The notes under the pieces: generated by a model | The model's database searches: none | What the model was told of the DNA's origin: nothing | What the model saw: the letters and a program-made list of their open reading frames with translations, nothing else | Program-made: the position numbers and the translations under genes | Source: Flavobacteriales bacterium | GTDB lineage: Bacteria; Bacteroidota; Bacteroidia; UBA10329 | Direction: 5' to 3' | Assembly (NCBI GenBank): GCA_021739625.1 | Contig: JAIPBJ010000020.1 | Location: 1-37,127, forward strand | Length of the DNA: 37,127 bases | Shown here: piece after piece, positions 4,309 to 36,424 of the stretch | Position numbering within the stretch: position 1 is the stretch's first letter | Layout: every line of letters begins with the position of its first letter

Positions 4309-5928
4309 TCACCGGATCGAGACCATCCTTCCAGTAAGCACAGCGTCACCACTGCTCAGTTGGTAGAAATAGATGCCGGCAGGAAGCCCGCTCATGTCCA
4401 GTGATGTCGATGTCCGGGTGATGTTGCGACTGAGCATCTCAGCACCGACCGCATTGAACACCTTCATCAGATAAGGATTCGAGCCGGTTGCATCCGGCAC
4501 CGTAAACATGACTGAAGCTGTGAATGGATTGGGATGAACAGACACTTGCAATACTGCGTCAGCTTCAGTCGCCAGCCCCACGGTGGCGCTACAATTATCA
4601 GGAATCATGTCGGCCATGCCCTCAAAGGCATTCGTTCCCACAGCACCTACACCTGTCAAGACCCTGCCATGCACCGCAGTTCCAGTGGACATGCCCACCG
4701 CCCCCTGACTCACGATGGTGCCACTGAAGTCCGAGTAGTCGGCCATGTCGATCGCCCCGTTCACCATCCAATAGACGTTCTCCGCCTGAGCACCATTGGT
4801 GAGCTTCACCTTTGAAAGCGCAGATGATGCGAAAGCACCGTACACCTTGATGATGAACACCGCGTCTGTCCTGCCCTGCGCATTGAGGTAGAGCGTATCG
4901 GTGAAGGTGGTGCCCCCGTTCAGGATATACGTGTGCGGTGTCAACTCAAGCCCAAGGCCGAACTGCGCAGGATAGAGCAGCGCAATGTCGGGTGCAAGCC
5001 CATTGAGGTAGTTGTAGGCCACCAGCAGGTCGGCAGCGGCCTCGGCAGTGGTGCTGTTGGGAATGGGGTGCAGGGTTCCGGTGACCAACAGCGGGTCGAA
5101 TCCCGTGGTAAGGCCCACATTCGCCCCCACATCGCCCATCACGTGCGTCACTCCAGTGTTGTCCACAGGGCCGTCAGACGAGAAGATGCCGAAGCAGCCC
5201 GCCTTTCCCAGCGTTGGGGCATCAGGCCCCAGCAGCACAGGGCTTCCGCAGCCTATCGGCATGCGGCCTACGATTCCGCTCACCGTCACCGCACCTGCCG
5301 TGGAAAGCGCCCGGCCCTCCAATGTGTCTCCGGTGCTCATCACGATGGCGGCATTGTTGGCAATCACAGTTCCGCGCATCGTGGTGCCAGCGGCCATGCT
5401 CACCAGCCCTTCCGTCACCCATAACACATTGCACGCCTTCGCACCATTGATCAGCGTGACCCGCGACAGCGCGTTGGTCGAGAACGCCCCGTTTATCAGG
5501 AATATGAACACTGCATTCGGATCGTTCTGCCCGTTCAGGATCAGTTCGAGGTTCAGTGTTGCGGCCTCGTCTATTTCAAATACGCCCGGGGCAAGTTCCT
5601 GCCCATTGCCCAGCAGAGGCGCGGGAAAGTCGGTGGGAACCGTGCTGCTCAGGTCGTTGTAGGCGCTCAGCAGGTCGGCAGCGCACTGGGCACTCACGGA
5701 ACCGCCATCGTGCATCGTGCCGTTCACATTGCCGAAGCCTGTGCTCGACCCACCGTTGGTGCCCACATTGCCCGTAAGCTGCGTGATACCTGTGTTGGTC
5801 ACCGCCCCGGCCGAGGAGAAGAGTACGAAATCGGCCGCCACTCCCAAGTTGGGCGTCTGTGCGGTCATCAGATTGGGAATAATGGACAGCGAAATAGCTG
5901 CAACAGCAATGCGTAGTGTGTGTTTCAT
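4309..5928 (-). CDS. Secreted tandem ice-binding protein (two DUF3494 domains) with T9SS sorting domain
   Basis: The 539-residue protein begins with a signal peptide (about 1-23, ending MTAQ). Two DUF3494 ice-binding-like domains follow. The first covers about residues 27-222 (AADFVLFSSAGAVTNTGITQ, LTGNVGTNGG). The second covers about 238-440 (FGIFSSDGPVDNTGVTHVMG, DVGANVG). Each repeats the family hallmarks of a beta-solenoid: GVFEID/HTYILNG, AVFIFLINGAFS / AVFIIKVYGAFA and the LEGRALSTAGAVT / VHGRVLTGVGAVG tail. A type A sorting domain ends the protein (VHPNPFTASVMF, GLPAGIYFYQLSSG), predicting T9SS export. Related single-domain proteins bind ice and inhibit recrystallisation or help cells adhere to ice. 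DUF3494 proteins of non-cold bacteria may have other roles, so ice binding is an inference from the family. It is a single-gene unit with its own terminator. Confidence 0.88.
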   Translation of the reverse strand: MKHTLRIAVAAISLSIIPNLMTAQTPNLGVAADFVLFSSAGAVTNTGITQLTGNVGTNGGSSTGFGNVNGTMHDGGSVSAQCAADLLSAYNDLSSTVPTDFPAPLLGNGQELAPGVFEIDEAATLNLELILNGQNDPNAVFIFLINGAFSTNALSRVTLINGAKACNVLWVTEGLVSMAAGTTMRGTVIANNAAIVMSTGDTLEGRALSTAGAVTVSGIVGRMPIGCGSPVLLGPDAPTLGKAGCFGIFSSDGPVDNTGVTHVMGDVGANVGLTTGFDPLLVTGTLHPIPNSTTAEAAADLLVAYNYLNGLAPDIALLYPAQFGLGLELTPHTYILNGGTTFTDTLYLNAQGRTDAVFIIKVYGAFASSALSKVKLTNGAQAENVYWMVNGAIDMADYSDFSGTIVSQGAVGMSTGTAVHGRVLTGVGAVGTNAFEGMADMIPDNCSATVGLATEADAVLQVSVHPNPFTASVMFTVPDATGSNPYLMKVFNAVGAEMLSRNITRTSTSLDMSGLPAGIYFYQLSSGDAVLTGRMVSIR

Positions 5929-24712: not shown

Positions 24713-24867
24713 GGGGAGTTGGTGTTGTGGGGTCTATTTGAAAGGTGGCGGGACCCTATGTTACTGCGTGCCGCAGTGAGCTCCCTTCGGTCGGTTCGAC
24801 ATGCTCAGGACAGGCAGCCACCGAATAATAGGCACGAGGGAAACGACCCTCGCGCCAGCGGGGGGGC
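24713..24867 (+). repeat. REP-like element, long copy B
   Basis: Almost identical to copy A across GGGGTCTATTTGAAAGGTGG, the ACTGCG/CGCAGT hairpin, TTCGACATGCTCAGGACAGG and CCACCGAATAATAGGCACGA. The right flank continues into ACCGAGGACGGTTGC, which recurs as ACCGAAGACGGTTGC after short copy D near 30788, so the family has a further module. Copy B sits in the gap (24660-24980) before the polyglutamate genes. No other feature is evident in that gap; a TAACCTTTG near 24936 has one base too many for a clean -7 box. Confidence 0.85.
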
Positions 24868-24980: not shown

Positions 24981-26174
24981 GTGCAAAGCCTAACGATAAT
25001 TACGCTTATTACAATTGTCCTGGTTCTCTATCTGCTGCTGGAATATCTGCGACATCAGAAGGCGCTTGCCACTATACCTCACCGCATTCACGTTAACGGC
25101 ACACGGGGCAAATCAAGTGTCACACGGCTGATAGGTGCTGGGCTAAGGGCAGGAGGCATACCCAGCATAACGAAAGTTACGGGCACCTATCCGCGAATGA
25201 TATTGCCTGATGGCAGTGAGGTCTCCATACATCGCAAGGAAAAGGCCAACATTCTTGAGCAATTGAACATTGTAAAGTACTGCTCTACTCATAAAGCAGA
25301 AGTGCTGATCATTGAATGCATGGCTTTACAGCCAGAGTATCAGCGCATTACCGAAAAACAGATGATCAAGGCAACAATGGGGGTGATTACGAACATCAGG
25401 ATGGATCATCTGGATGTGATGGGGCCGACATTGGACGATGTGGCCGTTGCCATCTGCAACACCATTCCTAAGAACACCAAACTCTTCACTGCCGAAGATC
25501 GATATACGAATTATATAAAGGGGGTTGCCTCAAAGAACAACTGCACGGTAAATGTGAGCAGACCGGCTCAAGTGAGTGACCATGACATGGAGGGTTTCAG
25601 CTACTTGGAGCACAAGGAGAATGTGGCCTTGGCCTTGAATGTCTGTGCCGAATTCGGTGTAAGTAAGGATAGGGCCTTGTCGGAAATGCATGTCTGTCTC
25701 CCAGATGAGGGCGTTCTGCGCAAGTTCAGCGTAGAACAGGATGGCAAGCGCATTCATTTTTTCAATGCGTTGGCTGCCAACGACCCGGAATCGTCCCTGA
25801 TCATTTGGAATAGCGTGATAGACAAATGTGGTCCTGATGAATTTAAAATTGCAGTGCTTAACAATAGAAAGGACCGACAGGACAGGGCAGTGCGGTTGGT
25901 AGAGATGGTGTCGAAATTGGAGTTTGACCTCTTGGTGCTCATCGGGGAAGCAGTGGAAATGGTGGAAAGCATGTGCAGATCCATCTCCATTCCCAAGGAC
26001 AAGTTACTGAGTATAGGACTGAAACCAACCGATGAGCAGTTCAGGATGCTGATGAACGCATCGGCAAAAAGCACTACGATCGTGGCATTCGGCAATATGG
26101 GTGCCGGTGGTGCAGAGCTGAGCAAAATGTTTGAGAACCAACACAACCACCAACTAAAAGGTCTGCGTGGATGA
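24981..26174 (+). CDS. pgsB: Poly-gamma-glutamate synthase ligase subunit
   Basis: The 397-residue length is close to the roughly 390 of characterised PgsB/CapB. An N-terminal membrane helix (ITLITIVLVLYLLLEYL) is followed by the Mur-ligase-type ATP-binding loop HVNGTRGKSSVTRLIGAGLR (Lys44) and VTGTYPRM. IIECMALQPEYQ and TNIRMDHLDVMGPT are further conserved ligase motifs. The enzyme uses ATP to extend a glutamate chain through gamma-amide bonds at the inner face of the cytoplasmic membrane. The start is a GTG. Its stop overlaps the pgsC start (ATGA), indicating translational coupling. It is the first gene of a six-gene run. Confidence 0.92.
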   Translation: MQSLTIITLITIVLVLYLLLEYLRHQKALATIPHRIHVNGTRGKSSVTRLIGAGLRAGGIPSITKVTGTYPRMILPDGSEVSIHRKEKANILEQLNIVKYCSTHKAEVLIIECMALQPEYQRITEKQMIKATMGVITNIRMDHLDVMGPTLDDVAVAICNTIPKNTKLFTAEDRYTNYIKGVASKNNCTVNVSRPAQVSDHDMEGFSYLEHKENVALALNVCAEFGVSKDRALSEMHVCLPDEGVLRKFSVEQDGKRIHFFNALAANDPESSLIIWNSVIDKCGPDEFKIAVLNNRKDRQDRAVRLVEMVSKLEFDLLVLIGEAVEMVESMCRSISIPKDKLLSIGLKPTDEQFRMLMNASAKSTTIVAFGNMGAGGAELSKMFENQHNHQLKGLRG

Positions 26175-26629
26175 TAGAGCTGGCAGTGACCATCGGGATT
26201 GTGCTCAGTCTGCTTTTTGTAGAGGCATTCGGGATGGCTGCGGGCGGTATCATCGTGCCAGGTTATATTGCTCTGCAACTCACATCTCCCGACAGAATCA
26301 TCGGGGTGCTGGTCATTGCGTTCATAACCTTCCTGTTGGTCAAACTGATTTCCAGATATACGTTCTTGTTCGGAAGGCGTCAGATGGTGGTTTCGTTGCT
26401 CATAGGGACCATTTTTTCAATCATCTCACATCACTATCTGTTTTTCAACATGGCCACTACGACCCTTGAGTTCAGTGCCGTGGGTTGGGTGGTTCCCGGT
26501 CTGATCGCCCACTGGTCGGTCAAACAAGGCTACCTGAAAACCCTTTCAATGCTGGCCATCACCTCTGTTCTGGTGAGGCTGTTGGTGATGCTCATATTTT
26601 GGGGCGAGCTTATACCTGACCTCTATTGA
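26171..26629 (+). CDS. pgsC: Poly-gamma-glutamate biosynthesis membrane protein PgsC/CapC
   Basis: The 152 residues match the family length of about 150. Four or five hydrophobic segments are present, and the hallmark FVEAFGMAAGGIIVPGYIAL lies near the N-terminus. PgsC forms the membrane synthase with PgsB. The start overlaps the pgsB stop by four bases. A second internal segment, WVVPGLIAHW, resembles the first (the two-half pattern of the family). Confidence 0.92.
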   Translation: MIELAVTIGIVLSLLFVEAFGMAAGGIIVPGYIALQLTSPDRIIGVLVIAFITFLLVKLISRYTFLFGRRQMVVSLLIGTIFSIISHHYLFFNMATTTLEFSAVGWVVPGLIAHWSVKQGYLKTLSMLAITSVLVRLLVMLIFWGELIPDLY

Positions 26630-26635
26630 AACGTA

Positions 26636-27757
26636 ATGAACAATAGAATATCCATACGGTCAACATTGGTTCTGATGATATTGGGCTTCCTTGCCATCTC
26701 CTTGCTGTGGATAGTGGAGAACACGAAGGTGCTGGTAGATGAAGACTGGCATCAGGAGAAGGAACAGGCTGCGCTGCTCATGAAAAAATGCATGGAGCAC
26801 ATTAAGAACGACCAGTTTGCAAATGAAATAGCCGTTGATAACATAAACGATCCGAACGGAACAGGTCTGATCGGTCAGCAGTTTACGGAGATCACTTCCG
26901 GTAGAGGTTCGCTTCCCATCAAGCTTTCAACCACCAATCCGAATTTCGCGGCCCTTGTGGTTCAGTTGTTCAAAGACGCAGGACTCAAGGAGGGCGATGA
27001 GGTGGCGATGTGTTTCACTGGGTCGTTCCCAGCGGTGAATATTGCTGTTTGTTCGGCCATAGATGTTCTCAAGCTCCGTCCGTTGCTCATTACTTCCGTC
27101 ACTTCCTCATCGTGGGGTGCCAACGACCCAGAGTTCACTTGGATTGACATGCATCAAAGTCTTTATGAGGCAAAACTCCTGAGTTTTCGGCCTCTGGCAT
27201 CTTCCATAGGGGGAAACGAGGATCTTGGAAAGACCCTCAGCACCGAATCTCGCCAAATGGCAGAAGTGGCTATTTCAAGGAACAACCTTCCTTATATAAA
27301 CGAGAACTCATTGGGAGGGAACATAAGTAAAAGGATGGAGATCTTCCGTCTGAATACGGTGGACGGAATAAAACTATATGTGAATGTGGGAGGAGGGATT
27401 GCAAGTTTTGGGAGCAGTGCGAATTTCAATGTGGTTGTTGCCGGGTTGAACGAAAACATGAAGATCAAGGAATTTCCGGTTCATCGAGGAATCATATACG
27501 AGATGGTAGAACAAGATATCTCGGTACTGAACTTCCTGAATCAAGGAGTACTTCTGAAACAATTCGGTCTCCCCAATGACCCTGTCCCCCTTCCAAAGAT
27601 CGGAGAAGGCAAGCTGTATTCCTCATTGCGCTATGATGTGCGAGTTGTGGGGGTGGCCCTTGTTGTCCTAAGCGGGCTATTGATATCCGTCATTTACATT
27701 GACAAGAAGCAGAATAAACTTGGCAGCACCATACTTAGTGACCCTGAATCGATTTAA
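26636..27757 (+). CDS. pgsW: PgsW-like poly-gamma-glutamate system protein
   Basis: The 373-residue protein starts six bases after pgsC. It has an N-terminal membrane anchor (STLVLMILGFLAISLLWIVE), a large extracytoplasmic body and a second membrane helix near the C-terminus (VRVVGVALVVLSGLLISVI). GDEVAMCFTGSFPAVNIAV and ITSVTSSSWGANDPEFTWID fit the poly-gamma-glutamate system protein family found beside pgsBC in some diderm bacteria. Its biochemical role is not established. It may replace PgsA/CapA, which is absent here. The symbol rests on family recognition plus context. Confidence 0.78.
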   Translation: MNNRISIRSTLVLMILGFLAISLLWIVENTKVLVDEDWHQEKEQAALLMKKCMEHIKNDQFANEIAVDNINDPNGTGLIGQQFTEITSGRGSLPIKLSTTNPNFAALVVQLFKDAGLKEGDEVAMCFTGSFPAVNIAVCSAIDVLKLRPLLITSVTSSSWGANDPEFTWIDMHQSLYEAKLLSFRPLASSIGGNEDLGKTLSTESRQMAEVAISRNNLPYINENSLGGNISKRMEIFRLNTVDGIKLYVNVGGGIASFGSSANFNVVVAGLNENMKIKEFPVHRGIIYEMVEQDISVLNFLNQGVLLKQFGLPNDPVPLPKIGEGKLYSSLRYDVRVVGVALVVLSGLLISVIYIDKKQNKLGSTILSDPESI

Positions 27758-27765
27758 AGTTGGCC

Positions 27766-28659
27766 ATGAGATTTACAATCCTTGTTCTATTCGTTCTATT
27801 CCACAATCAGGGTTTCGGTCAGAAGCAGAAGGAAGCGGTTCCTGATAAGTTCGTGGGCACGGTGATTCTGGTGGGAAACAAGAACTATGTCTATTACGCA
27901 CTTTCGGAGAAGATACGAACGGAAGTCACAGTGACCGGTCCGGGAGAGTTGACGGTTTATACACGGGTCAGAGTAGTCGAGCCAAATACACCGTCCAAAC
28001 CATTTGTGTTGAAATACATCATGGACGGCAAATCAGTGTCAACTGAAAAGATCGGCCCTCTGAAACCATCTTCAAAGTATAAGTTCAAAGGTAAGTTGGA
28101 AGGCGTTCCGACCCGAACAGAGAAGACGGTTATCGATATTCCTCCCGGAAAACACAAGATCAAATTTTTCAAGGCCCAAACAGATCAACCGGTGCATGCA
28201 CGCTATCTGATCAAGCAGTTCAATAAACCAAAATGGAATGATCTGAAGTCTTCAGAAACATTAAAAGAGGTGATGTTGACCTTTAGCAGTGGTGCAGTTC
28301 CGCCTCCCTATTACCGTATAACCGAAAAAGACCGGTTCATGTTCACTGTTTCAGATACCGCCAGAATCAGGATTTTGGTAAGGGCAGAATTCACGTACAA
28401 AATGCTTTCGGAGAGTTATCTGCGGTTGGAGGTTTTGGAAATCGGCAAGAGTCCTGTAATCTACAAGTTCTTGACGAAACGCGTTAAGAATGTCGTGTAC
28501 TCTGATGTGAACAAACTGGTTCCCAGCGATCTGCATAGCCTTTACTTGAATCTGCCCAAAGGATCGGGAGAACGGAAGTTCTCTGTGAGGGTGACGGGAG
28601 TCGGCAGCAGCGCGCTCATTCGAATCTCAAAAGATGTGAACCTGTCGGACAAACCCTGA
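27766..28659 (+). CDS. Secreted protein of unknown function in the polyglutamate cluster
   Basis: The frame opens at a TTG (27760), but the ATG at 27766 directly begins a signal peptide (MRFTILVLFVLFHNQGFGQ). The 297-residue mature part is basic and beta-rich (TVTGPGELTVYTRVRVVEP, DIPPGKHKIKFFKAQTD). The basic mature region would suit binding to a polyanion such as poly-gamma-glutamate; this is an inference from charge and location. I recognise no family. It starts eight bases after pgsW, so it is almost certainly co-transcribed. Confidence 0.78.
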   Translation: MRFTILVLFVLFHNQGFGQKQKEAVPDKFVGTVILVGNKNYVYYALSEKIRTEVTVTGPGELTVYTRVRVVEPNTPSKPFVLKYIMDGKSVSTEKIGPLKPSSKYKFKGKLEGVPTRTEKTVIDIPPGKHKIKFFKAQTDQPVHARYLIKQFNKPKWNDLKSSETLKEVMLTFSSGAVPPPYYRITEKDRFMFTVSDTARIRILVRAEFTYKMLSESYLRLEVLEIGKSPVIYKFLTKRVKNVVYSDVNKLVPSDLHSLYLNLPKGSGERKFSVRVTGVGSSALIRISKDVNLSDKP

Positions 28660-28692
28660 TCATCTAAAAGCTTTACAAACAATTTTCAACTC

Positions 28693-29421
28693 ATGAAATA
28701 CACCATGAAACAAATTTCAAAGTATCTGCTGCCCATGCTTGCCGTCATCTTCCTGCATGGGTGTTCAAAGGAAGCAGGATTCGGTGGGAATTCAGCCATA
28801 ACCGGATCGCTGAGGCTCAAGGTTTACAATGCCGACTTTTCGGAACTGTTGGATGATGTGGATCTGGCCGATACCTATGTTTACTTGTCGACAACCACCG
28901 GCTATGGCTATCTGGACCGCGTGAATACGTCATTCAACGGTTCATTTGAATTCAATAATCTGAATCCTGGAGATTACATCATTTACACCTATTCGAGCGA
29001 CACAACGCTATCGTCAATTGACGATATCGTCATCCAAAAAACGGTCACGATAAATAGTTCCAACGAGTCTGTAAGCTGTGGCACTTTAACCGTGGCCACT
29101 TCTGTAACAGTGGGGAACTCTTCCATAAGCGGAAGGATAATGTACCAATCTGTGAGCAACCCTAACTTTCAATATCCGGCTCCTGATGAGCGGGTCTTCA
29201 TCATGTACAATGATGAACCTACTTATAAGACCTTCGTGCGCACCAGCTATGACGGATACTACATATTCGATCGCCTTCCAATTGGAAAATATCGGATATA
29301 CGCATATAGCGCAGACATCGATAACATCTCACCGTATGCGTCAATCCCTGTACTTGACAGTCTGGTCATAGAACACAATGGAACCGATACCACTTTGTCA
29401 GACATTGTGATTTACAATTAA
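28693..29421 (+). CDS. Lipoprotein with two Cna-B/carboxypeptidase-regulatory-like beta domains
   Basis: The 242-residue protein has a lipoprotein signal (LLPMLAVIFLHGC), after which mature Cys24 would be lipidated. Two similar beta-sandwich repeats follow, each ending in the NLNPGDYIIYTYSSDT or RLPIGKYRIYAYSADI pattern typical of prealbumin-like folds. Such domains are usually structural or binding modules at the cell surface. It lies 33 bases after the preceding gene and 11 before the next, inside the polyglutamate run. A role in anchoring or guiding the polymer is speculative. Confidence 0.8.
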   Translation: MKYTMKQISKYLLPMLAVIFLHGCSKEAGFGGNSAITGSLRLKVYNADFSELLDDVDLADTYVYLSTTTGYGYLDRVNTSFNGSFEFNNLNPGDYIIYTYSSDTTLSSIDDIVIQKTVTINSSNESVSCGTLTVATSVTVGNSSISGRIMYQSVSNPNFQYPAPDERVFIMYNDEPTYKTFVRTSYDGYYIFDRLPIGKYRIYAYSADIDNISPYASIPVLDSLVIEHNGTDTTLSDIVIYN

Positions 29422-29432
29422 TTGTAGGCATC

Positions 29433-30275
29433 ATGCGAAAGATTCCAGTGCTGATCATTTTGTGTTTTTGCGTTCTCGCTGTGAACGTTAAGGCGCAGGA
29501 TGATTTTTCAGGTGGCAACGTATGGTCGTCCGTTTTCCTATCAAAGAAGATCACGCCACGCTGGTATTTCAACAACTATCTATTAGTGGGTTTCAAGGAA
29601 AGCGGTCAGTTGGCGTTTGTGCAGAATGACCTTTCGTTCAGATATAGGTTTGATAGGTTCTGGTCAATGGGTGTCGGTTACAAGCATGCACAGTACGCTG
29701 CCTATCCTGGCATAGACAAGATTTATCCTCAATCGGTAACGAGTTACGGTTCCATTATCTTTCACGGTGCGGAGATCGATGTTCAATTCGATCGACATTT
29801 GGGCAAGTCTTTCTGGATTTCCCAATCGTTGATTGTGCAGGGCTATTTTCCACGATTCGAGAAGTATCAGTTCAGATATATTTCACGGACGAAGCTTGCA
29901 TACAGGAATAAGAAGGCATTTTTACACATAACGCCATACGTTACGTTTATGCTATACTACTATCACAATGGTAAACCGTTCAATTATTATGATGAGAACG
30001 GTGATATAGAAGCGTACCGTTCTCCCAATGGGTTCCATCGGTACAGGGCAATTGTAGGGTTCTCGTTCAAACCAACAAAAAAGATAAGTCAACTTGGGTT
30101 CAACTTTTACTATGCGATCAATAGAGAGTTCAACTTCAGCAACTCCAACTCCCCACTGAACGTCAGAACACCGACTGCGGTGGCAGATGGCTCCAACGTT
30201 AAAGTTCCATTCAACAACTACAACATTTTCGGGGTTCAGGTGAATATCATCCTCGGAATGAACAAAGGAAAGTAG
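29433..30275 (+). CDS. DUF2490-like outer-membrane beta-barrel protein
   Basis: This 280-residue protein has a signal peptide (ending VNVKAQ). Alternating aromatic/hydrophobic strands follow (GNVWSSVFLSKKITPRWYF, YRFDRFWSMGVGYKH, NIFGVQVNIILGMNKG). The opening VWSSVFLSKKIT and the R[F/Y] strand pattern resemble DUF2490 outer-membrane proteins. The last strand ends near the C-terminus, as expected for a barrel. As the final gene of the polyglutamate run it is the natural candidate for an outer-membrane exit or anchor. A pore function is inferred, not shown. Confidence 0.78.
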   Translation: MRKIPVLIILCFCVLAVNVKAQDDFSGGNVWSSVFLSKKITPRWYFNNYLLVGFKESGQLAFVQNDLSFRYRFDRFWSMGVGYKHAQYAAYPGIDKIYPQSVTSYGSIIFHGAEIDVQFDRHLGKSFWISQSLIVQGYFPRFEKYQFRYISRTKLAYRNKKAFLHITPYVTFMLYYYHNGKPFNYYDENGDIEAYRSPNGFHRYRAIVGFSFKPTKKISQLGFNFYYAINREFNFSNSNSPLNVRTPTAVADGSNVKVPFNNYNIFGVQVNIILGMNKGK

Positions 30276-30420
30276 AAACCGGTTGACCTTGCGGAGAAAA
30301 GCCCCTCGCACCAGCGGGCAAAGACGCAAAGGGGTTTGCACGCAGAGAAGCAGAGGGAAGGAGAAAATGGGGAAATAGGGTTTCGCGTAAAGCCACAGAA
30401 GCACAGGATTTTACAGAGAG
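30276..30420. other. Intergenic spacer with repeat debris
   Basis: This is the left part of the gap between the polyglutamate run and thyA (30276-30925). It holds a short relic of the REP right end (GCCCCTCGCACCAGCGGG at 30301-30318) and low-complexity G/A-rich DNA. No convincing terminator is visible for the upstream operon, although the hairpins in REP copy C could act as one. Confidence 0.45.
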
Positions 30421-30540
30421 AGGTGGCGGGACCCTATGTTACTGCGTGCCGCAGTGAGCTCCCTTCGGTCGGTTCGACAAGCTCAGGACAGGCTGCCACC
30501 GAATAATAGGAACGAGGGAAAAGACCCTCGCGCCAGCGGG
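30421..30540 (+). repeat. REP-like element, long copy C
   Basis: AGGTGGCGGGACCCTATGTT, the ACTGCG/CGCAGT hairpin, GGTTCGACAAGCTCAGGACA and GGCTGCCACCGAATAATAGG match copies A and B. The left module GGGGTCTATTT is missing. Inner TTCGACAAGCTCAG differs by one base from the ATGCTCAG of A and B. Confidence 0.83.
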
Positions 30541-30541
30541 G

Positions 30542-30925: not shown

Positions 30926-31720
30926 ATGAATCAGTACGAGATTCTTCTAAAGCACGTTTACGAGAACGGGACGGACAAGTCTGATAGAACAGGCACGGGT
31001 ACTCGAAGCCTCTTCGGCTATCAGATGCGCTATGATCTCTCAGAAGGATTCCCCTTGGTTACCACCAAAAAGGTACACCTCCGCTCAATTATTTATGAAC
31101 TGCTATGGTTCCTGCGGGGTGACACGAACATCAAATTCCTCAAGGACAATGGTGTAACCATATGGGATGAGTGGGCAGACCAGGACGGAGAACTTGGAAG
31201 CATTTACGGCTACCAGTGGCGCTCATGGCCGACACCAGACGGGCGGCATATTGATCAGATAACCAATGTTGTAAACACCATTAAAAACAACCCGGACTCA
31301 CGTAGAATCATCGTAAGTGCGTGGAACGTGGCCGACATTGACAAGATGGCATTGCCTCCATGCCATACGCTTTTTCAATTCTATGTCTCAGAAGGCAAGC
31401 TATCCTGCCAACTGTATCAACGGAGTGCGGACTTGCTTCTTGGAGTTCCATTCAACATTGCCTCGTTTGCATTGCTCACCATGATGATTGCTCAAGTTAC
31501 AGGCCTTGCATATGGAGATTTCGTTCACACCTTTGGAGATGTGCATATCTATAAGAATCACTTTGAGCAGGTTGATCTGCAACTGAGCCGTGAACCCCGG
31601 CTGTATCCCAAGATGATCTTGAATCCGAATGTGAAATCCATATTTGATTTCACGTATGAGGATTTTCAATTGGACGGCTACAATCCGCATCCACCAATTA
31701 AAGCTCCGATTGCGGTATGA
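30926..31720 (+). CDS. thyA: Thymidylate synthase
   Basis: From the ATG at 30926 the product is 264 residues, the same length as E. coli ThyA; upstream in-frame codons (to 30860) lie outside the conserved fold. Key features are the phosphate-binding [11 protein letters not shown] (Arg21), [11 protein letters not shown], the catalytic Cys146 in [30 protein letters not shown] and the C-terminal IKAPIAV. It methylates dUMP to dTMP with methylenetetrahydrofolate. Its TGA overlaps the start of the DNA methyltransferase (ATGA), so thyA leads the same message as the cassette downstream. No folate reductase gene is adjacent. Confidence 0.96.
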
Positions 31721-32769
31721 TTGGTGTAGAGCTTTTTTCGGGTGCGGGAGGTATGTCGCTGGGGGCAGCCCTAGCTGGTGTAAACGTGAAGTTTGCGGTG
31801 GAAAATGACAGGGATGCGGTGAACACTTTCAAGTTTAACCACCCCGATACCACGGTCTACGACCAAGACATTAGGACACTTAAAAGAATTGCGATTGCGA
31901 AAGATAGTAAACCTACGATACTCTTCGGTGGGCCTCCATGTCAAGGGTTTTCCACCTCTAATCAGCGAAATAGAAGTGCCGAAAATGCCAATAATTGGTT
32001 ATTTAAAGAGTATGTCCGTTTATTGGCGGGATGGATGCCAAACTGGGTGGTGTTGGAGAATGTCAAAGGCCTAAAAGAAACTGAAGGAGGTCTTTTTCTA
32101 GAGGAAATTATCTCCAGTTTTTCCTCGTTAGGATATAAGACAACCCATGCGGTGCTAAATGCTGCTGATTTCGGTGTGCCACAAAGAAGGGATAGAATTT
32201 TTGTCGTTGGCTCCCGAGATAACATTGAATTTACCTTTCCAGAAAAAACACATGAAAAAAGCGTCACAGTAAGTGATGCTCTTTCCGATCTTCCTATAAT
32301 TGAGAATGGAAACAACATAGGCATTCTACCCTACTCCAGTCCTCCAATGAATGAATATGCCAAATTTGTAAGGGGGGATTTGAAAGTTGTTTCAAATAAT
32401 ATAGTAACTCGCAACTCTCAGGGGGTTATAGACAGGTATAAGTACGTACCTCCAGGAGGGAACTGGGAAAGCATCCCCCTCGAACTGATGCACAATTATA
32501 CAGACGTATCTAGATGTCATACCGGAATTTACAAGAGGCTTCGATTGGATGAGCCATCAGTCGTTATTGGGAACTTTCGAAAGAACATGTTGATTCATCC
32601 AAAATACAACCGTGGACTATCCGTTCGGGAGGCCGCTCGTATTCAGTCATTTCCTGACAATTACGTTTTTACTGGTTCGATAGGATTTCAACAACAACAG
32701 GTAGGGAATGCAGTACCTCCTTTGCTAGCCAAAAAAGTATTTGAATCGATAATGGTGCACCATGAATAA
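31717..32769 (+). CDS. C5-cytosine DNA methyltransferase
   Basis: The 350-residue protein contains the ordered C5-methyltransferase motifs: I ([20 protein letters not shown] binding), IV ([11 protein letters not shown], catalytic Cys75), VI (LENVKG), VIII ([10 protein letters not shown]), IX ([18 protein letters not shown]) and X ([15 protein letters not shown]). It methylates cytosine at carbon 5 in a specific DNA site that cannot be read from sequence. The region between VIII and IX, which sets specificity, is short. No restriction endonuclease with a recognisable nuclease motif is next to it. It overlaps thyA upstream and the HD gene downstream. Its DNA is AT-rich (22/60 G+C at 31861-31920), suggesting transfer. 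Confidence 0.94.
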
Positions 32770-33802
32770 ATTTGAGAATCTACTACAGGCTAGCCTAAAA
32801 GAAGAATTGGGGGATGACTTGGGAAACAGCTACTTTCACAGATATGAGTCTGTGAAGAGTAAGTGTATAGATCAAATCTACAGCCAAATAGTTGGCACTG
32901 AACCTAGTCTCACAAAACATGATGGGTCCCACCTGGAGGGAATATTTAGTAACCTATACTATCTAATAGGGAGTGATGCAAAATATTTCAGTCCCTACGA
33001 ACAATACGTCCTCGCATTAATCGTAGTTTTCCATGATGTGGGAAATCTACAGGGAAGGAGTGCACATGAAAGAAAGACAACTGTGGGCAAGTTATATAAC
33101 GACATGCGTGGCACAGATCCGAAATGGCGGCAAGAACGCCACATAGTAATCACAGCATCTGAAGCACATACAGGAAAGGATGCCCAAGACAATCCAGTCG
33201 ACACACTGAGCAAAGTTCACAAATTATCAAATCTCGAAGAAGGACAGCCAATCAGGTTGCAGGAATTGGCTGCCATCTTCAGATTAGCAGACGAACTTGA
33301 CGAAGGACCTAGACGTACTTCTTTCGTTCGACAAGGTTTGCCATCAGCAAAAGGAGGATACCCGAATGAAAGCATGCCTCACCATGAATTTGCAAATAAC
33401 ATCAACGTATTTATTGACCGTGGCAATGGAAGAATTGTATTAACATACTATTTGAATTGGGACTCCACAACAAATCCCGATGGTTCGAAGATAAGTGCCG
33501 AGTTAAACACGCTGGCAAGTAGAGCACTGAAGATTAACGATGAACGGAAGTATACAAAATACTATTCGCATGGAGTGTTATCGCCATTTACTAGAACCGA
33601 GCTTTCAATAAACTGCTCAATAGATGAGATTCCAACAAATTACACAATTGGACCAGTAGTACTCGGAGATGAAGTCCCAATTCCAACGAAAAGAGATGTT
33701 AACCACGCAATGGAGCGAGTGTGCTCAATCGATGACTCTATGTCATTTGCAAAGGTGTTTGAAAATCTAAAAAGAATCCATGATGAGCAGGAATCCATTT
33801 GA
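32762..33802 (+). CDS. HD-domain protein (predicted metal-dependent phosphohydrolase) of the methyltransferase cassette
   Basis: This 346-residue protein has HD-superfamily signatures: HDGSHLEGIF (His53/His57), VVFHDVGN (His91-Asp92), further histidines at 127 and 136, and RLADELDEGP (Asp177, Asp180). These would bind the metal pair. The first half is thus a likely phosphohydrolase; the rest (residues about 190-346) is mixed alpha/beta without recognised motifs. HD enzymes cut nucleotides or cyclic nucleotides, and the substrate here is unknown. The start overlaps the methyltransferase by eight bases and the stop overlaps the ATPase gene by 23, pointing to coupled translation. Confidence 0.82.
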   Translation: MNKFENLLQASLKEELGDDLGNSYFHRYESVKSKCIDQIYSQIVGTEPSLTKHDGSHLEGIFSNLYYLIGSDAKYFSPYEQYVLALIVVFHDVGNLQGRSAHERKTTVGKLYNDMRGTDPKWRQERHIVITASEAHTGKDAQDNPVDTLSKVHKLSNLEEGQPIRLQELAAIFRLADELDEGPRRTSFVRQGLPSAKGGYPNESMPHHEFANNINVFIDRGNGRIVLTYYLNWDSTTNPDGSKISAELNTLASRALKINDERKYTKYYSHGVLSPFTRTELSINCSIDEIPTNYTIGPVVLGDEVPIPTKRDVNHAMERVCSIDDSMSFAKVFENLKRIHDEQESI

Positions 33803-35522
33803 GTTCGAAGCGGCAAATAATTTGACAACACGTGAATTACTCGATTACTATATCGAAGATTTCAACTATTCTCGTTTTCTAGACTCCAAACGTAATATTT
33901 TCTTGCTCGGAGAGCGGGGATCTGGAAAAACAATGACGTTGCTATATCACTCATTTAAGGTAAAATATCAAGATTCGAGAAGGAATGATGCTTCAGATCT
34001 ACTGGACAATGTAGGGGTTCACATACCGTGCAATACACCTCTGTTTCATAAGAAGGAGTACCTGCTACTTGATGATGATCATAAAGCACAGATTATTGCT
34101 GAACATTATTTCGTAATTGCAATTGTCAATGAAATAATTTTATCATTGAGTCTTGTCGGGGATGCCAAAGAGGCTTTCAAGCCCTTCGATAAGGAATTTC
34201 TGGAAGAGATTGGATATATATTTAATATACCAAGTCGAAGCAATTCTAATTTCCTAGACTCGGTAAGAAAGTGGATTGGAAAAATTGTATTTAATACTCA
34301 GAAGCACATCAATCAAGCTGAAAATATTTTTTACGAGGAAGCCCTCTCTTTAGGCTCTTTTCTGCTTCCACTTATTAAGATGATTAAACAGGTTCCATTG
34401 TTTAGCTCTACTCACTTTAGTTTCCTAATGGATGATGCACACGACCTCAATATTCATCAAATTAAAGTGCTAAACTCGTGGATTGCCTATCGCGACCATT
34501 CAGATTTCAGTGTCAAGTTGGCAACCACAAAAGTTAATAAGCCTATTCAAATTACTACTACTGGCGGTTCAATACTGGAAGGACATGACTTCACCATCAT
34601 TGACTTAGAAAAACCATACTTTAATAAGGATTCTGACTTTGGTAAGCTTGCCAGGCAAATTATCAAGAAGAGACTTCTTAAAATTAATAACTTAGACATC
34701 GAACCAGAAGATTTTTTTCCAACAAGCAAGGAGTTTGAAGCAGCTCTCGAAAAATACAAGGAAATTGCCCGAATAGAAGCGGTTTCAATTTATGGTCATT
34801 CCGATCCTAAGAAAATCACAGATCATGTATATAAGTATTCTCGGGCATACTACTTTCGTGAAAGAGCAAAATCGAAAGCCAATCTGGTCCCATACTCTGG
34901 GTTTTCAATGTTGGTTGATTTGTCTACGGGGATTATACGAAACTTACTAGACCCTTGTTATTATATGTACGATGCAGTGGTTTCTGAGGCAAGTGAACCC
35001 TTTGAGGGTATTCATTTCGTGCCGCCTCATACTCAACGAGAGGTAATATTGAATAGGAGCAATGCGCTGTGGAAACGCCTTGAAAATGGTCTGGAGAAAG
35101 AAATTGAGGGGTGCTCTGAGGAACAAGGGAAGATGATACTTCAGTTGATAGATAATATTGTTTCATTGTTCCGTGAACGATTGTTGCATCATAAGTCTGA
35201 ACCTAGGGCCATTATGTTTTCGATTTCTGAGGTGAACGATGCCTCTTTTGTAAAGCTGATAGAACTGTTACGAATTGCGCAGATGTCTCAGTTGCTTTAC
35301 ACGAGAACAGGCGTGTCCAAAGATGACGGGAAGAAGGACACCTATTATATTCTGAACAGAATGTTTTTACCGACCAGAGGGCTGGATCCCAACGGTCAGC
35401 ATGCTCGAGTGTCTATTAAGAGCAAAGATTTATGGAATGCCGCTAAGGATAATAAATCAATCCCGTACTCAAAAGGTAATGACAACAGCCCTGAGGAGTC
35501 CGTTCAACCAAAATTGTTTTGA
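33780..35522 (+). CDS. ORC/CDC6-like AAA ATPase
   Basis: The 580-residue protein has a Walker A loop LLGERGSGKTMTLLYH (Lys50, Thr51) and a Walker B FSFLMDDAHDLN (about 213-224). A sensor-like LATTKVN follows at about 247-253. The pattern, including the preceding FLDSKRNIF and a DDAH box, fits the ORC-CDC6-type AAA ATPases often found in bacterial conflict systems. The C-terminal 250 residues are helical and may hold a recognition or oligomerisation domain. It could act as a sensor or motor for its neighbours. Start choices ATG 33780 and ATG 33783 are adjacent. The DNA is very AT-rich (19/60 G+C at 34681-34740). Confidence 0.8.
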   Translation: MMSRNPFEFEAANNLTTRELLDYYIEDFNYSRFLDSKRNIFLLGERGSGKTMTLLYHSFKVKYQDSRRNDASDLLDNVGVHIPCNTPLFHKKEYLLLDDDHKAQIIAEHYFVIAIVNEIILSLSLVGDAKEAFKPFDKEFLEEIGYIFNIPSRSNSNFLDSVRKWIGKIVFNTQKHINQAENIFYEEALSLGSFLLPLIKMIKQVPLFSSTHFSFLMDDAHDLNIHQIKVLNSWIAYRDHSDFSVKLATTKVNKPIQITTTGGSILEGHDFTIIDLEKPYFNKDSDFGKLARQIIKKRLLKINNLDIEPEDFFPTSKEFEAALEKYKEIARIEAVSIYGHSDPKKITDHVYKYSRAYYFRERAKSKANLVPYSGFSMLVDLSTGIIRNLLDPCYYMYDAVVSEASEPFEGIHFVPPHTQREVILNRSNALWKRLENGLEKEIEGCSEEQGKMILQLIDNIVSLFRERLLHHKSEPRAIMFSISEVNDASFVKLIELLRIAQMSQLLYTRTGVSKDDGKKDTYYILNRMFLPTRGLDPNGQHARVSIKSKDLWNAAKDNKSIPYSKGNDNSPEESVQPKLF

Positions 35523-35524
35523 GC

Positions 35525-36424
35525 ATGAAAGATTCTGATCGACCTGCCGTATTGTTTATTGGACTTAGCTGGGAAGAGCGATGCTTTCTTGGATTGAAGG
35601 TTGACCATAAGTATTACAACAGGACCACTAAGGTTGTACTTCTTTATAACGAGCATAGTTCTGATCGAGACGCTGCTAACCGTGACAAAATCATACAGTA
35701 TTGCAAGAAAAGAAATATTATAGTCCAAGAAATTTTATTGAAATACAATGATTCCATTTTCAATTGGAAGACAATCGAGAAGGCGATTTTTGGGATTAGG
35801 GAAGAACTTGGGCGAGCAGTACTCGATATTACCACGTTACCTAGAGAGTTAGCGTGGACTTTATTATACAATATCGGAAAGTATACTCCATCAGTGCAGT
35901 ACATTTATCATTCTCCAGCTAAGTACACAGATGAGTGGGTTTGTAAAGAACCAGGTGCTCCCAGACTCTTGTTCCGACATTCTGGCATAAGCGAACTAAA
36001 TAAACCTACAGCTTTAATTATACTTACTGGATTTGATGAAATCAGAACAAAGAAACTAGTTGAGTATTATGAGCCGAAATTTCTCGCATTGGGCATTCAA
36101 ACTGGTTCAAAGTATAGTAATAATGTGAGAAATTCTCTTTCAAAGCATCTTGATGTAGTTAAAGGAGAAGTTGAACACACACATTTTTCCATTGACGCTT
36201 ATTCTAAGGAACATGGCTTAGGGCAATTGAATAGAATTATCAAGCAACTCAGGGGCTATAACATTGTTGCCTGCTCACATGGCCCTAAACTGACATTGGT
36301 TTCACTCTATCGAAGTCATCAAAGCAATCCGCAAATGGCATTATGTTATGTGCCTTCGCGGTTGTACAACATAAACTACTCCGATGGAATAGGAGAAACT
36401 TTTCGCGGGGTTATAGAATTTTAA
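35525..36424 (+). CDS. Two-lobed protein of unknown function, last gene of the cassette
   Basis: The ATG at 35525 is two bases after the ATPase stop; a TTG at 35519 overlaps it but is less likely. The 299-residue product has two Rossmann-like halves. Half one carries VLFIGLSWEERC (residues 9-20) and GRAVLDITTLPRELAW (96-111); half two begins PTALIILTGFDEIRTKKLVE. The LDITTLPRE motif recalls the DITGG/DISS-type loops of CARF-like and related ligand-binding folds, but this is a resemblance only. There is no nuclease or membrane motif. It may be a ligand sensor or effector for the ATPase. Confidence 0.72.
   Translation: MKDSDRPAVLFIGLSWEERCFLGLKVDHKYYNRTTKVVLLYNEHSSDRDAANRDKIIQYCKKRNIIVQEILLKYNDSIFNWKTIEKAIFGIREELGRAVLDITTLPRELAWTLLYNIGKYTPSVQYIYHSPAKYTDEWVCKEPGAPRLLFRHSGISELNKPTALIILTGFDEIRTKKLVEYYEPKFLALGIQTGSKYSNNVRNSLSKHLDVVKGEVEHTHFSIDAYSKEHGLGQLNRIIKQLRGYNIVACSHGPKLTLVSLYRSHQSNPQMALCYVPSRLYNINYSDGIGETFRGVIEF

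What the first reader, a model, noticed from the sequence alone, without database searches (positions are those of the whole stretch)
24981..30275. Poly-gamma-glutamate operon with its own candidate outer-membrane machinery and no PgsA
pgsB, pgsC and a pgsW-like gene are followed closely by a secreted basic protein, a two-domain lipoprotein and a DUF2490-like barrel, all on one strand with gaps of 6-33 bases. Classical polyglutamate synthases come from Gram-positive bacteria and need PgsA/CapA, which is missing. Together the three extra genes could form a periplasm-spanning export or anchoring path for polyglutamate in a diderm.
Basis: partly seen in the sequence, partly recalled or inferred. 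Interest (0 to 1): 0.75.

Follow-up and report, generated by a model that had tools for sequence, protein, structure and literature searches.

The report
Polyglutamate operon with outer-membrane export genes
This Bacteroidota genome makes a polyglutamate polymer with a synthase whose genes always travel with a secreted, positively charged two-domain protein and an outer-membrane barrel, which probably carry the polymer across the second membrane, a step for which I found no described machinery.

Summary
The six genes are real and in the stated order (24981-30275, + strand). pgsB, pgsC and the third gene pass NCBIfam cut-offs (TIGR04012, TIGR04011, TIGR04332). Relatives confirm a conserved cassette: 24 of 24 loci of this type have the basic-protein gene beside pgsBC-W. 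A barrel gene accompanies it in 23 of 23 loci whose contigs reach far enough, but it comes from at least two, probably three, sequence-unrelated families. The two-domain lipoprotein is optional. Across 690 genomes, the basic-protein family occurs in exactly the 11 genomes carrying this cassette and never without it. A second type of pgsBC-W locus has gamma-glutamyltransferase, TRAP, DUF6305 and AstE-like genes instead, and neither extra gene. Models give tandem beta-sandwiches for the basic protein and a NanC-like barrel. The missing PgsA is not new: TIGR04332 takes its place in known Gram-negative loci, and a published capsule model treats CapA as accessory. What is new is the dedicated periplasm/outer-membrane pair, filling a gap in the polyglutamate capsule model for diderms. 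Transport itself is inferred, not shown.

The parts
24981..26174 (+). pgsB: poly-gamma-glutamate synthase (Mur-ligase type), P-loop GTRGKSS
   Evidence: TIGR04012 6.5e-124, 413.5 bits over cut-off 222.7; P-loop present in all homologues complete at that end
26171..26629 (+). pgsC: membrane subunit of the synthase
   Evidence: TIGR04011 118.8 bits over cut-off 96.45; PF14102 2.1e-31
26636..27757 (+). pgsW / TIGR04332: inner-membrane protein with one hydrophobic stretch at each end and a large, probably periplasmic, domain; takes the PgsA/CapA position
   Evidence: TIGR04332 298.2 bits over cut-off 100; topology read from sequence by the positive-inside rule (alignment)
27766..28659 (+). secreted basic protein (signal peptide, mature pI 9.9, net +22): two tandem beta-sandwich domains; proposed periplasmic polyanion guide (ORF can also start at TTG 27760)
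   Evidence: in 24/24 type-I loci; exact co-occurrence with the cassette; pI 9.4-10.2 in 20/20; AF2 pLDDT 88; CBM-like sandwich matches in Foldseek; no Pfam/NCBIfam family
28693..29421 (+). lipoprotein with two transthyretin-like domains; accessory, optional
   Evidence: weak matches to NOMO_3rd, fn3_3, CarboxypepD_reg and others; Cys invariant in 8 homologues; absent from L012, L013, L019, L020, L022-L025, L027
29433..30275 (+). outer-membrane beta-barrel, DUF2490-like, probably 12 strands (11 long strands in the model); proposed exit pore
   Evidence: AF2 pLDDT 84, pTM 0.80; best solved match NanC E 1.1e-4, prob 1.00; family matches DUF2490; slot always filled by a barrel
24740..24863 (+). 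left copy of a 124-bp direct repeat flanking the operon (contains a hairpin)
   Evidence: 96% identical to 30418-30541
30418..30541 (+). right copy of the 124-bp direct repeat flanking the operon

Best explanation
The locus encodes a poly-gamma-glutamate (PGA) synthase of the PgsB-PgsC-TIGR04332 kind plus a dedicated two-part path across the rest of a diderm envelope. Steps: (1) PgsB/PgsC polymerise glutamate at the inner face of the inner membrane [function inferred from curated family membership]. (2) TIGR04332, in the PgsA position with its large domain in the periplasm, helps hand the chain through [inferred]. (3) The secreted basic protein, two positively charged beta-sandwich domains in tandem, binds the polyanion in the periplasm and keeps it extended or guides it outward, working like the periplasmic polymer-binding subunits of exopolysaccharide secretion [position, charge, predicted fold and strict co-occurrence shown; binding inferred]. 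(4) The outer-membrane barrel, NanC/KdgM-like in the window and replaced by other barrels in relatives, is the exit pore [barrel fold predicted; slot conservation shown; transport inferred]. (5) The lipoprotein is an accessory, perhaps surface tethering or pore assembly [inferred].
For: Curated cut-offs passed for B, C and W. B-C-W-basic contiguous in 24/24 type-I loci, with a barrel in 23/23 whose contigs reach far enough; one locus (L028) is permuted to lipoprotein-barrel-B-C-W-basic and keeps all parts. Non-orthologous replacement of the barrel in the same slot: window type, a ~377-aa type in L012/L013 and a ~380-aa type in L040-L045, with no detectable similarity of either larger type to the window type. 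Basic-protein family in exactly the 5/395 class genomes and 7/296 phylum genomes that hold the cassette, none elsewhere. pI 9.4-10.2 in 20/20. Stop-start overlaps of 4 bases between basic and barrel genes in five loci. AF2/Foldseek: NanC and KdgM, pores for acidic oligosaccharides, among matches to the barrel; carbohydrate-binding-module-like sandwiches for the basic protein. Type I is one clade, separate from type II, when type II is the outgroup. Relatives of the barrel in genomes without pgs genes sit beside an ABC exporter in 5/5 cases examined, so the family accompanies export machines.
Against: No biochemical evidence of PGA in any of these bacteria; PgsB substrate is inferred from homology. 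Type-II loci in diderms, including Cetobacterium, lack both extra genes in the locus, so PGA handling in a diderm does not universally need them. Lumen-facing residues of the barrel are net positive, but equally so in relatives outside pgs loci, so charge does not single out PGA. A 12-strand pore is narrow. Foldseek whole-chain TM-scores for the basic protein are low (at most 0.29), so its similarity is at domain-fold level only. The alignments behind the models have only 15-17 sequences.
Confidence: 0.55

Rival explanations
1. Anchoring rather than export: the chain leaves by some other route, and the basic protein, lipoprotein and barrel hold PGA at the cell surface as a capsule, replacing CapD-type covalent anchoring.
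For: The window genome has no gamma-glutamyltransferase/CapD homologue, and GGT is missing near the Bacteroidia type-I loci while present in all six type-II loci. The basic protein is suited to non-covalent binding of a polyanion. A lipoprotein is often present.
Against: The lipoprotein, the natural anchor, is optional. No alternative outer-membrane route is encoded in the operon. L044/L045 have GGT as well as the basic protein and barrel, so the gene sets are not simple substitutes.
Confidence: 0.2
2. The polymer is not PGA but a related gamma-linked polyamide or peptide conjugate; the PgsB/C homologues have changed substrate, and the extra genes export that product.
For: Francisella capBCA has not been shown to make PGA and is thought to do something else (PMC4688374). 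Mur-type ligases vary in substrate.
Against: PgsB scores 413 bits against an equivalog model with cut-off 222.7; PgsC is also over its equivalog cut-off. The companion basic proteins are all strongly basic, as expected for a polyanion.
Confidence: 0.15
3. The last genes are passengers or a separate unit without functional link to pgsBC-W.
For: Only consensus scans of transcription signals could be made, and they were uninformative.
Against: Order kept in 24 loci across several classes, 4-base overlaps, a permuted locus that keeps all parts, perfect co-occurrence of the basic family in 690 genomes.
Confidence: 0.03
4. The barrel and basic protein serve turnover: re-uptake or degradation of PGA fragments, not secretion.
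For: NanC and KdgM, the closest solved pores for acidic oligomers, are uptake pores by established knowledge; Foldseek ranks them among its matches. Type-II loci carry catabolic-looking genes (TRAP, GGT, AstE-like) beside pgsBC-W.
Against: Type-I loci of Bacteroidia show no GGT, AstE-like or TRAP gene nearby; the gene pair goes with the synthase, and barrel relatives go with ABC exporters.
Confidence: 0.07

Closest known systems
Bacillus pgsBCA(E) / capBCADE polyglutamate synthase
   Same: PgsB and PgsC pass the same curated family models; operon starts B-C.
   Different: No PgsA/CapA in the cluster; TIGR04332 instead; no PgsE/CapE or CapD/GGT; three extra envelope genes.
pgsBC-TIGR04332 loci of other diderms (Francisella capBCA; Cetobacterium pgsBC-pgsW)
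   Same: B-C-W core in the same order (Cetobacterium). Francisella capA is annotated as 'poly-gamma-glutamate system protein' in PMC5362203; not compared by sequence here.
   Different: The Cetobacterium locus has GGT, DUF6305, TRAP and AstE-like genes and no basic protein or barrel.
Synthase-dependent exopolysaccharide secretion (cellulose BcsB/BcsC, alginate, PNAG)
   Same: Logic: inner-membrane synthase, periplasmic polymer-binding part, outer-membrane barrel. BcsB appears among weak Foldseek matches of the basic protein (rank 49, E 7.5e-4).
   Different: Polyamide, not polysaccharide; no TPR scaffold; small DUF2490-like barrel instead of a 16-18-strand one; no sequence relation.
NanC/KdgM 12-strand porins
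   Same: Best solved-structure match of the modelled barrel (NanC E 1.1e-4, prob 1.00; KdgM 2e-3); pores for acidic linear oligomers.
   Different: 10-12% identity, TM 0.36-0.57; uptake pores in Proteobacteria; the window barrel belongs near DUF2490 (TC 1.B.81, function not established, PMC4827864).

Membership tests
Poly-gamma-glutamate synthase core (PgsB/PgsC) | PgsB over the TIGR04012 equivalog cut-off with intact P-loop | tested here: met
   413.5 vs 222.7 bits; GTRGKSS
Poly-gamma-glutamate synthase core (PgsB/PgsC) | PgsC over the TIGR04011 cut-off, adjacent to PgsB | tested here: met
   118.8 vs 96.45 bits, 4-base overlap
Poly-gamma-glutamate synthase core (PgsB/PgsC) | makes poly-gamma-glutamate | not testable with these tools
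   needs polymer chemistry
Classical Bacillus-type pgsBCA | PgsA/CapA (PF09587) in the operon | tested here: not met
   only CapA-family gene found in the genome is on contig C25 in an exopolysaccharide cluster
Classical Bacillus-type pgsBCA | CapD/GGT for anchoring or release | tested here: not met
   no PF01019 match in the window genome
TIGR04332 poly-gamma-glutamate system protein | score over the curated cut-off and position third after pgsBC | tested here: met
   298.2 vs 100 bits
DUF2490 outer-membrane barrels | Pfam gathering score | tested here: inconclusive
   window protein 17.3 vs 29.8 bits; 7 of 15 homologues match, best 1.4e-7
NanC/KdgM porins | sequence-level membership | tested here: not met
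   no KdgM Pfam match; fold-level similarity only
Synthase-dependent exopolysaccharide secretion | TPR scaffold plus outer-membrane polysaccharide porin | tested here: not met
   no TPR match in any of the six proteins; barrel is of another family
Outer-membrane polymer exit pore | transports PGA across the outer membrane | not testable with these tools
   requires mutants or reconstitution

The most novel reading that the evidence does not exclude
A distinct kind of envelope-crossing path for a secreted polymer: a polyamide synthase coupled to a previously unnamed, strongly basic periplasmic guide family and exchangeable outer-membrane pores. It would be the first dedicated outer-membrane export route for polyglutamate.
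Probability: 0.45. Interest if true: 0.8.

Novelty: new variant of a known kind. Interest (0 to 1): 0.63.

Why it matters
The published CapsuleFinder model of polyglutamate capsules (CapABCDE) lists no outer-membrane component, although such loci occur in most phyla and diderms are said there to need at least one more protein to cross the outer membrane (PMC5542703). This cassette names two specific candidates and a protein family found only with them, so the question can be tested directly. It would also give a marker separating two kinds of diderm pgs loci and a possible route to secreting a commercial polymer from Gram-negative hosts.

Tried and rejected
Lumen charge of the barrel as evidence for a polyanion pore: positive (net +3 to +14) but equally positive in relatives outside pgs loci; dropped. 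Three-partner machinery: the lipoprotein fails the conservation test. Sequence relation between the window barrel and the larger barrels in the same slot: none found; the two larger types share only weak, non-significant similarity. PDB sequence search with PgsW and PgsB: no match. Plasmid search for the basic protein: none. Promoter/terminator scans: uninformative. pgsB without TIGR04332 in the class: none over the cut-off in 193 genomes (the 3 that pass all carry the type-I cassette). The literature library held no paper that I found naming an outer-membrane step for PGA, but most subscription journals are not in it.

Full report
Observation. The window is one whole contig (C23) of a 3.69-Mb draft genome with 179 contigs. 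Six ORFs lie in a row on the + strand from 24981 to 30275. The first three pass curated NCBIfam cut-offs as PgsB, PgsC and TIGR04332 'poly-gamma-glutamate system protein'. The fourth has a signal peptide by inspection and no family. The fifth is a lipoprotein with two weak transthyretin-like repeats. The sixth is a barrel whose family touches DUF2490. Gaps run from a 4-base overlap to 33 bases.

Neighbourhood survey. TIGR04332 is rare: 5 of 395 genomes sampled from the class and 12 of 296 from the phylum, and only 1 of the 9 genomes of its own order, all of one genus. A scan of 84,980 species genomes with the PgsW alignment gave 17 Bacteroidota loci. Every one, and the window, has B-C-W followed directly by the basic gene (in L015 the basic gene is split in two ORFs). 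The window-type barrel is present in 14 of those 17 loci; L012 and L013 carry a different barrel-like protein of about 377 aa in the same slot, and L014 ends before the slot. The lipoprotein is in L014-L018, L021, L026, L028 and the window, and absent from the others. L028 is permuted (lipoprotein-barrel-B-C-W-basic) and its basic protein has three repeats instead of two. Six loci from other classes of the phylum (L040-L045) also read B-C-W-basic followed by a barrel-like protein of about 380 aa, with an LVIVD-repeat protein after it in L040-L043. I call all of these type I: 24 loci. Several are close relatives (L015-L018, L019/L020, L021/L026, L040/L041), so independent lineages are fewer, roughly 14-16. 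The barrel nature of the larger proteins rests on weak Pfam/NCBIfam matches and sequence features, not on models.

A second type. Five genomes of the phylum (L046-L050) and a Cetobacterium plasmid (L051, annotated pgsB, pgsC, pgsW) have B-C-W preceded by gamma-glutamyltransferase, DUF6305, an AstE-like protein and a TRAP permease, and no basic protein or matching barrel. With type II as outgroup, a concatenated B+C+W tree puts type I together as one clade. L044 and L045, which branch nearest to type II, have both the basic protein and a nearby GGT. In the Bacteroidia part of the tree the two-domain lipoprotein looks ancestral and lost several times, whereas the basic gene is never lost.

Specificity. 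A profile of the basic protein finds exactly the same 5 of 395 class genomes and exactly the 7 type-I genomes of the phylum sample; it finds none of the 5 type-II genomes and no genome without the cassette. The window and four of the hit genomes supplied sequences to the profile, but the six other-class genomes did not, and the absence of any other hit is the informative part. The barrel profile is broader: 23 of 395 genomes. The five best relatives outside pgs loci all sit beside an ABC exporter and a ~355-aa P-loop protein weakly like DUF1611, so this barrel family accompanies at least two kinds of inner-membrane export machine.

Structure. AlphaFold2 gives the barrel at pLDDT 84 and pTM 0.80, with 11 long strands, probably 12 in reality. 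The best solved match is NanC, E 1.1e-4, probability 1.00, TM 0.44/0.57; KdgM is also listed. The basic protein is modelled as two beta-sandwiches, pLDDT 88. Its matches are mostly carbohydrate-binding-module-like sandwiches, several of them tandem, and, weakly, BcsB of cellulose synthase. Whole-chain TM-scores are at most 0.29, so this says 'tandem jelly-roll-like sandwiches', not homology. All 20 basic proteins measured have pI 9.4-10.2.

Mechanism. From the gene set, the most likely working is: synthesis by PgsB/C at the inner membrane, hand-over by TIGR04332 with its periplasmic domain, guidance of the polyanion by the basic tandem-sandwich protein, exit through the barrel. Shown: presence, order, conservation, strict co-occurrence, charge and predicted folds. 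Inferred: the polymer, the binding, the direction of transport. The exchange of the barrel for sequence-unrelated ones in the same slot is best explained by a need for some outer-membrane pore at that step.

What is not new. PGA loci are known in most phyla and in Gram-negatives (PMC5542703; Fusobacterium nucleatum as cited in PMC3815933). CapA is accessory in the CapsuleFinder model because PGA can be made without it (PMC5542703). Francisella capA is annotated as a 'poly-gamma-glutamate system protein' (PMC5362203), and that locus is not proven to make PGA (PMC4688374). The same CapsuleFinder paper notes that diderms need at least one more protein to cross the outer membrane, while its PGA model (CapABCDE) lists none; that is the gap this cassette would fill.

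Setting. The operon is flanked by 124-bp direct repeats, 96% identical, at 24740-24863 and 30418-30541. A hairpin inside them occurs six times in the genome, four of them on this contig. The operon's GC is 46%, against 57% to its left and 43% to its right. With presence in only one of nine congeners this suggests a mobile or easily lost block, but I could not look for the empty site in relatives.

Verdict. New variant of a known kind, interest 0.63.

Noticed in passing
window 24740-24863 and 30418-30541: 124-bp direct repeats, 96% identical, bracket the pgs operon; the hairpin inside occurs 6 times in the genome, 4 of them on this contig. They could mediate gain or loss of the block.
   Followed up: partly
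L073-L077 (genomes G212, G326, G146, G382, G131): Relatives of the barrel sit next to an ABC exporter and a ~355-aa P-loop protein weakly like DUF1611 in 5 of 5 loci; an unnamed export cassette. One locus (L073) also has an Asparaginase_2-family gene.
   Followed up: partly
L046-L051: A second, distinct pgsBC-TIGR04332 operon type: TRAP permease, AstE-like protein, DUF6305 and gamma-glutamyltransferase upstream, in 6 of 6 loci.
   Followed up: partly
window 31717-36424: Low-GC run of a type II cytosine methyltransferase, an unknown 346-aa protein, an ORC-CDC6-like ATPase (PF24389, 3.7e-94) and a protein matching PADLOC CARF6 models (2.6e-29): a possible defence cluster.
   Followed up: no
L028:5466-6722: Basic protein with three domains instead of two, in a permuted operon.
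   Followed up: no
L040:16485-18001 and L041:1-1428: ORFs similar to the CapA family (E 4e-10 and 3e-9) a few kb downstream of two type-I operons, cut by the locus ends.
   Followed up: no
window 4309-5928: Ice-binding-like protein with a T9SS sorting domain.
   Followed up: no
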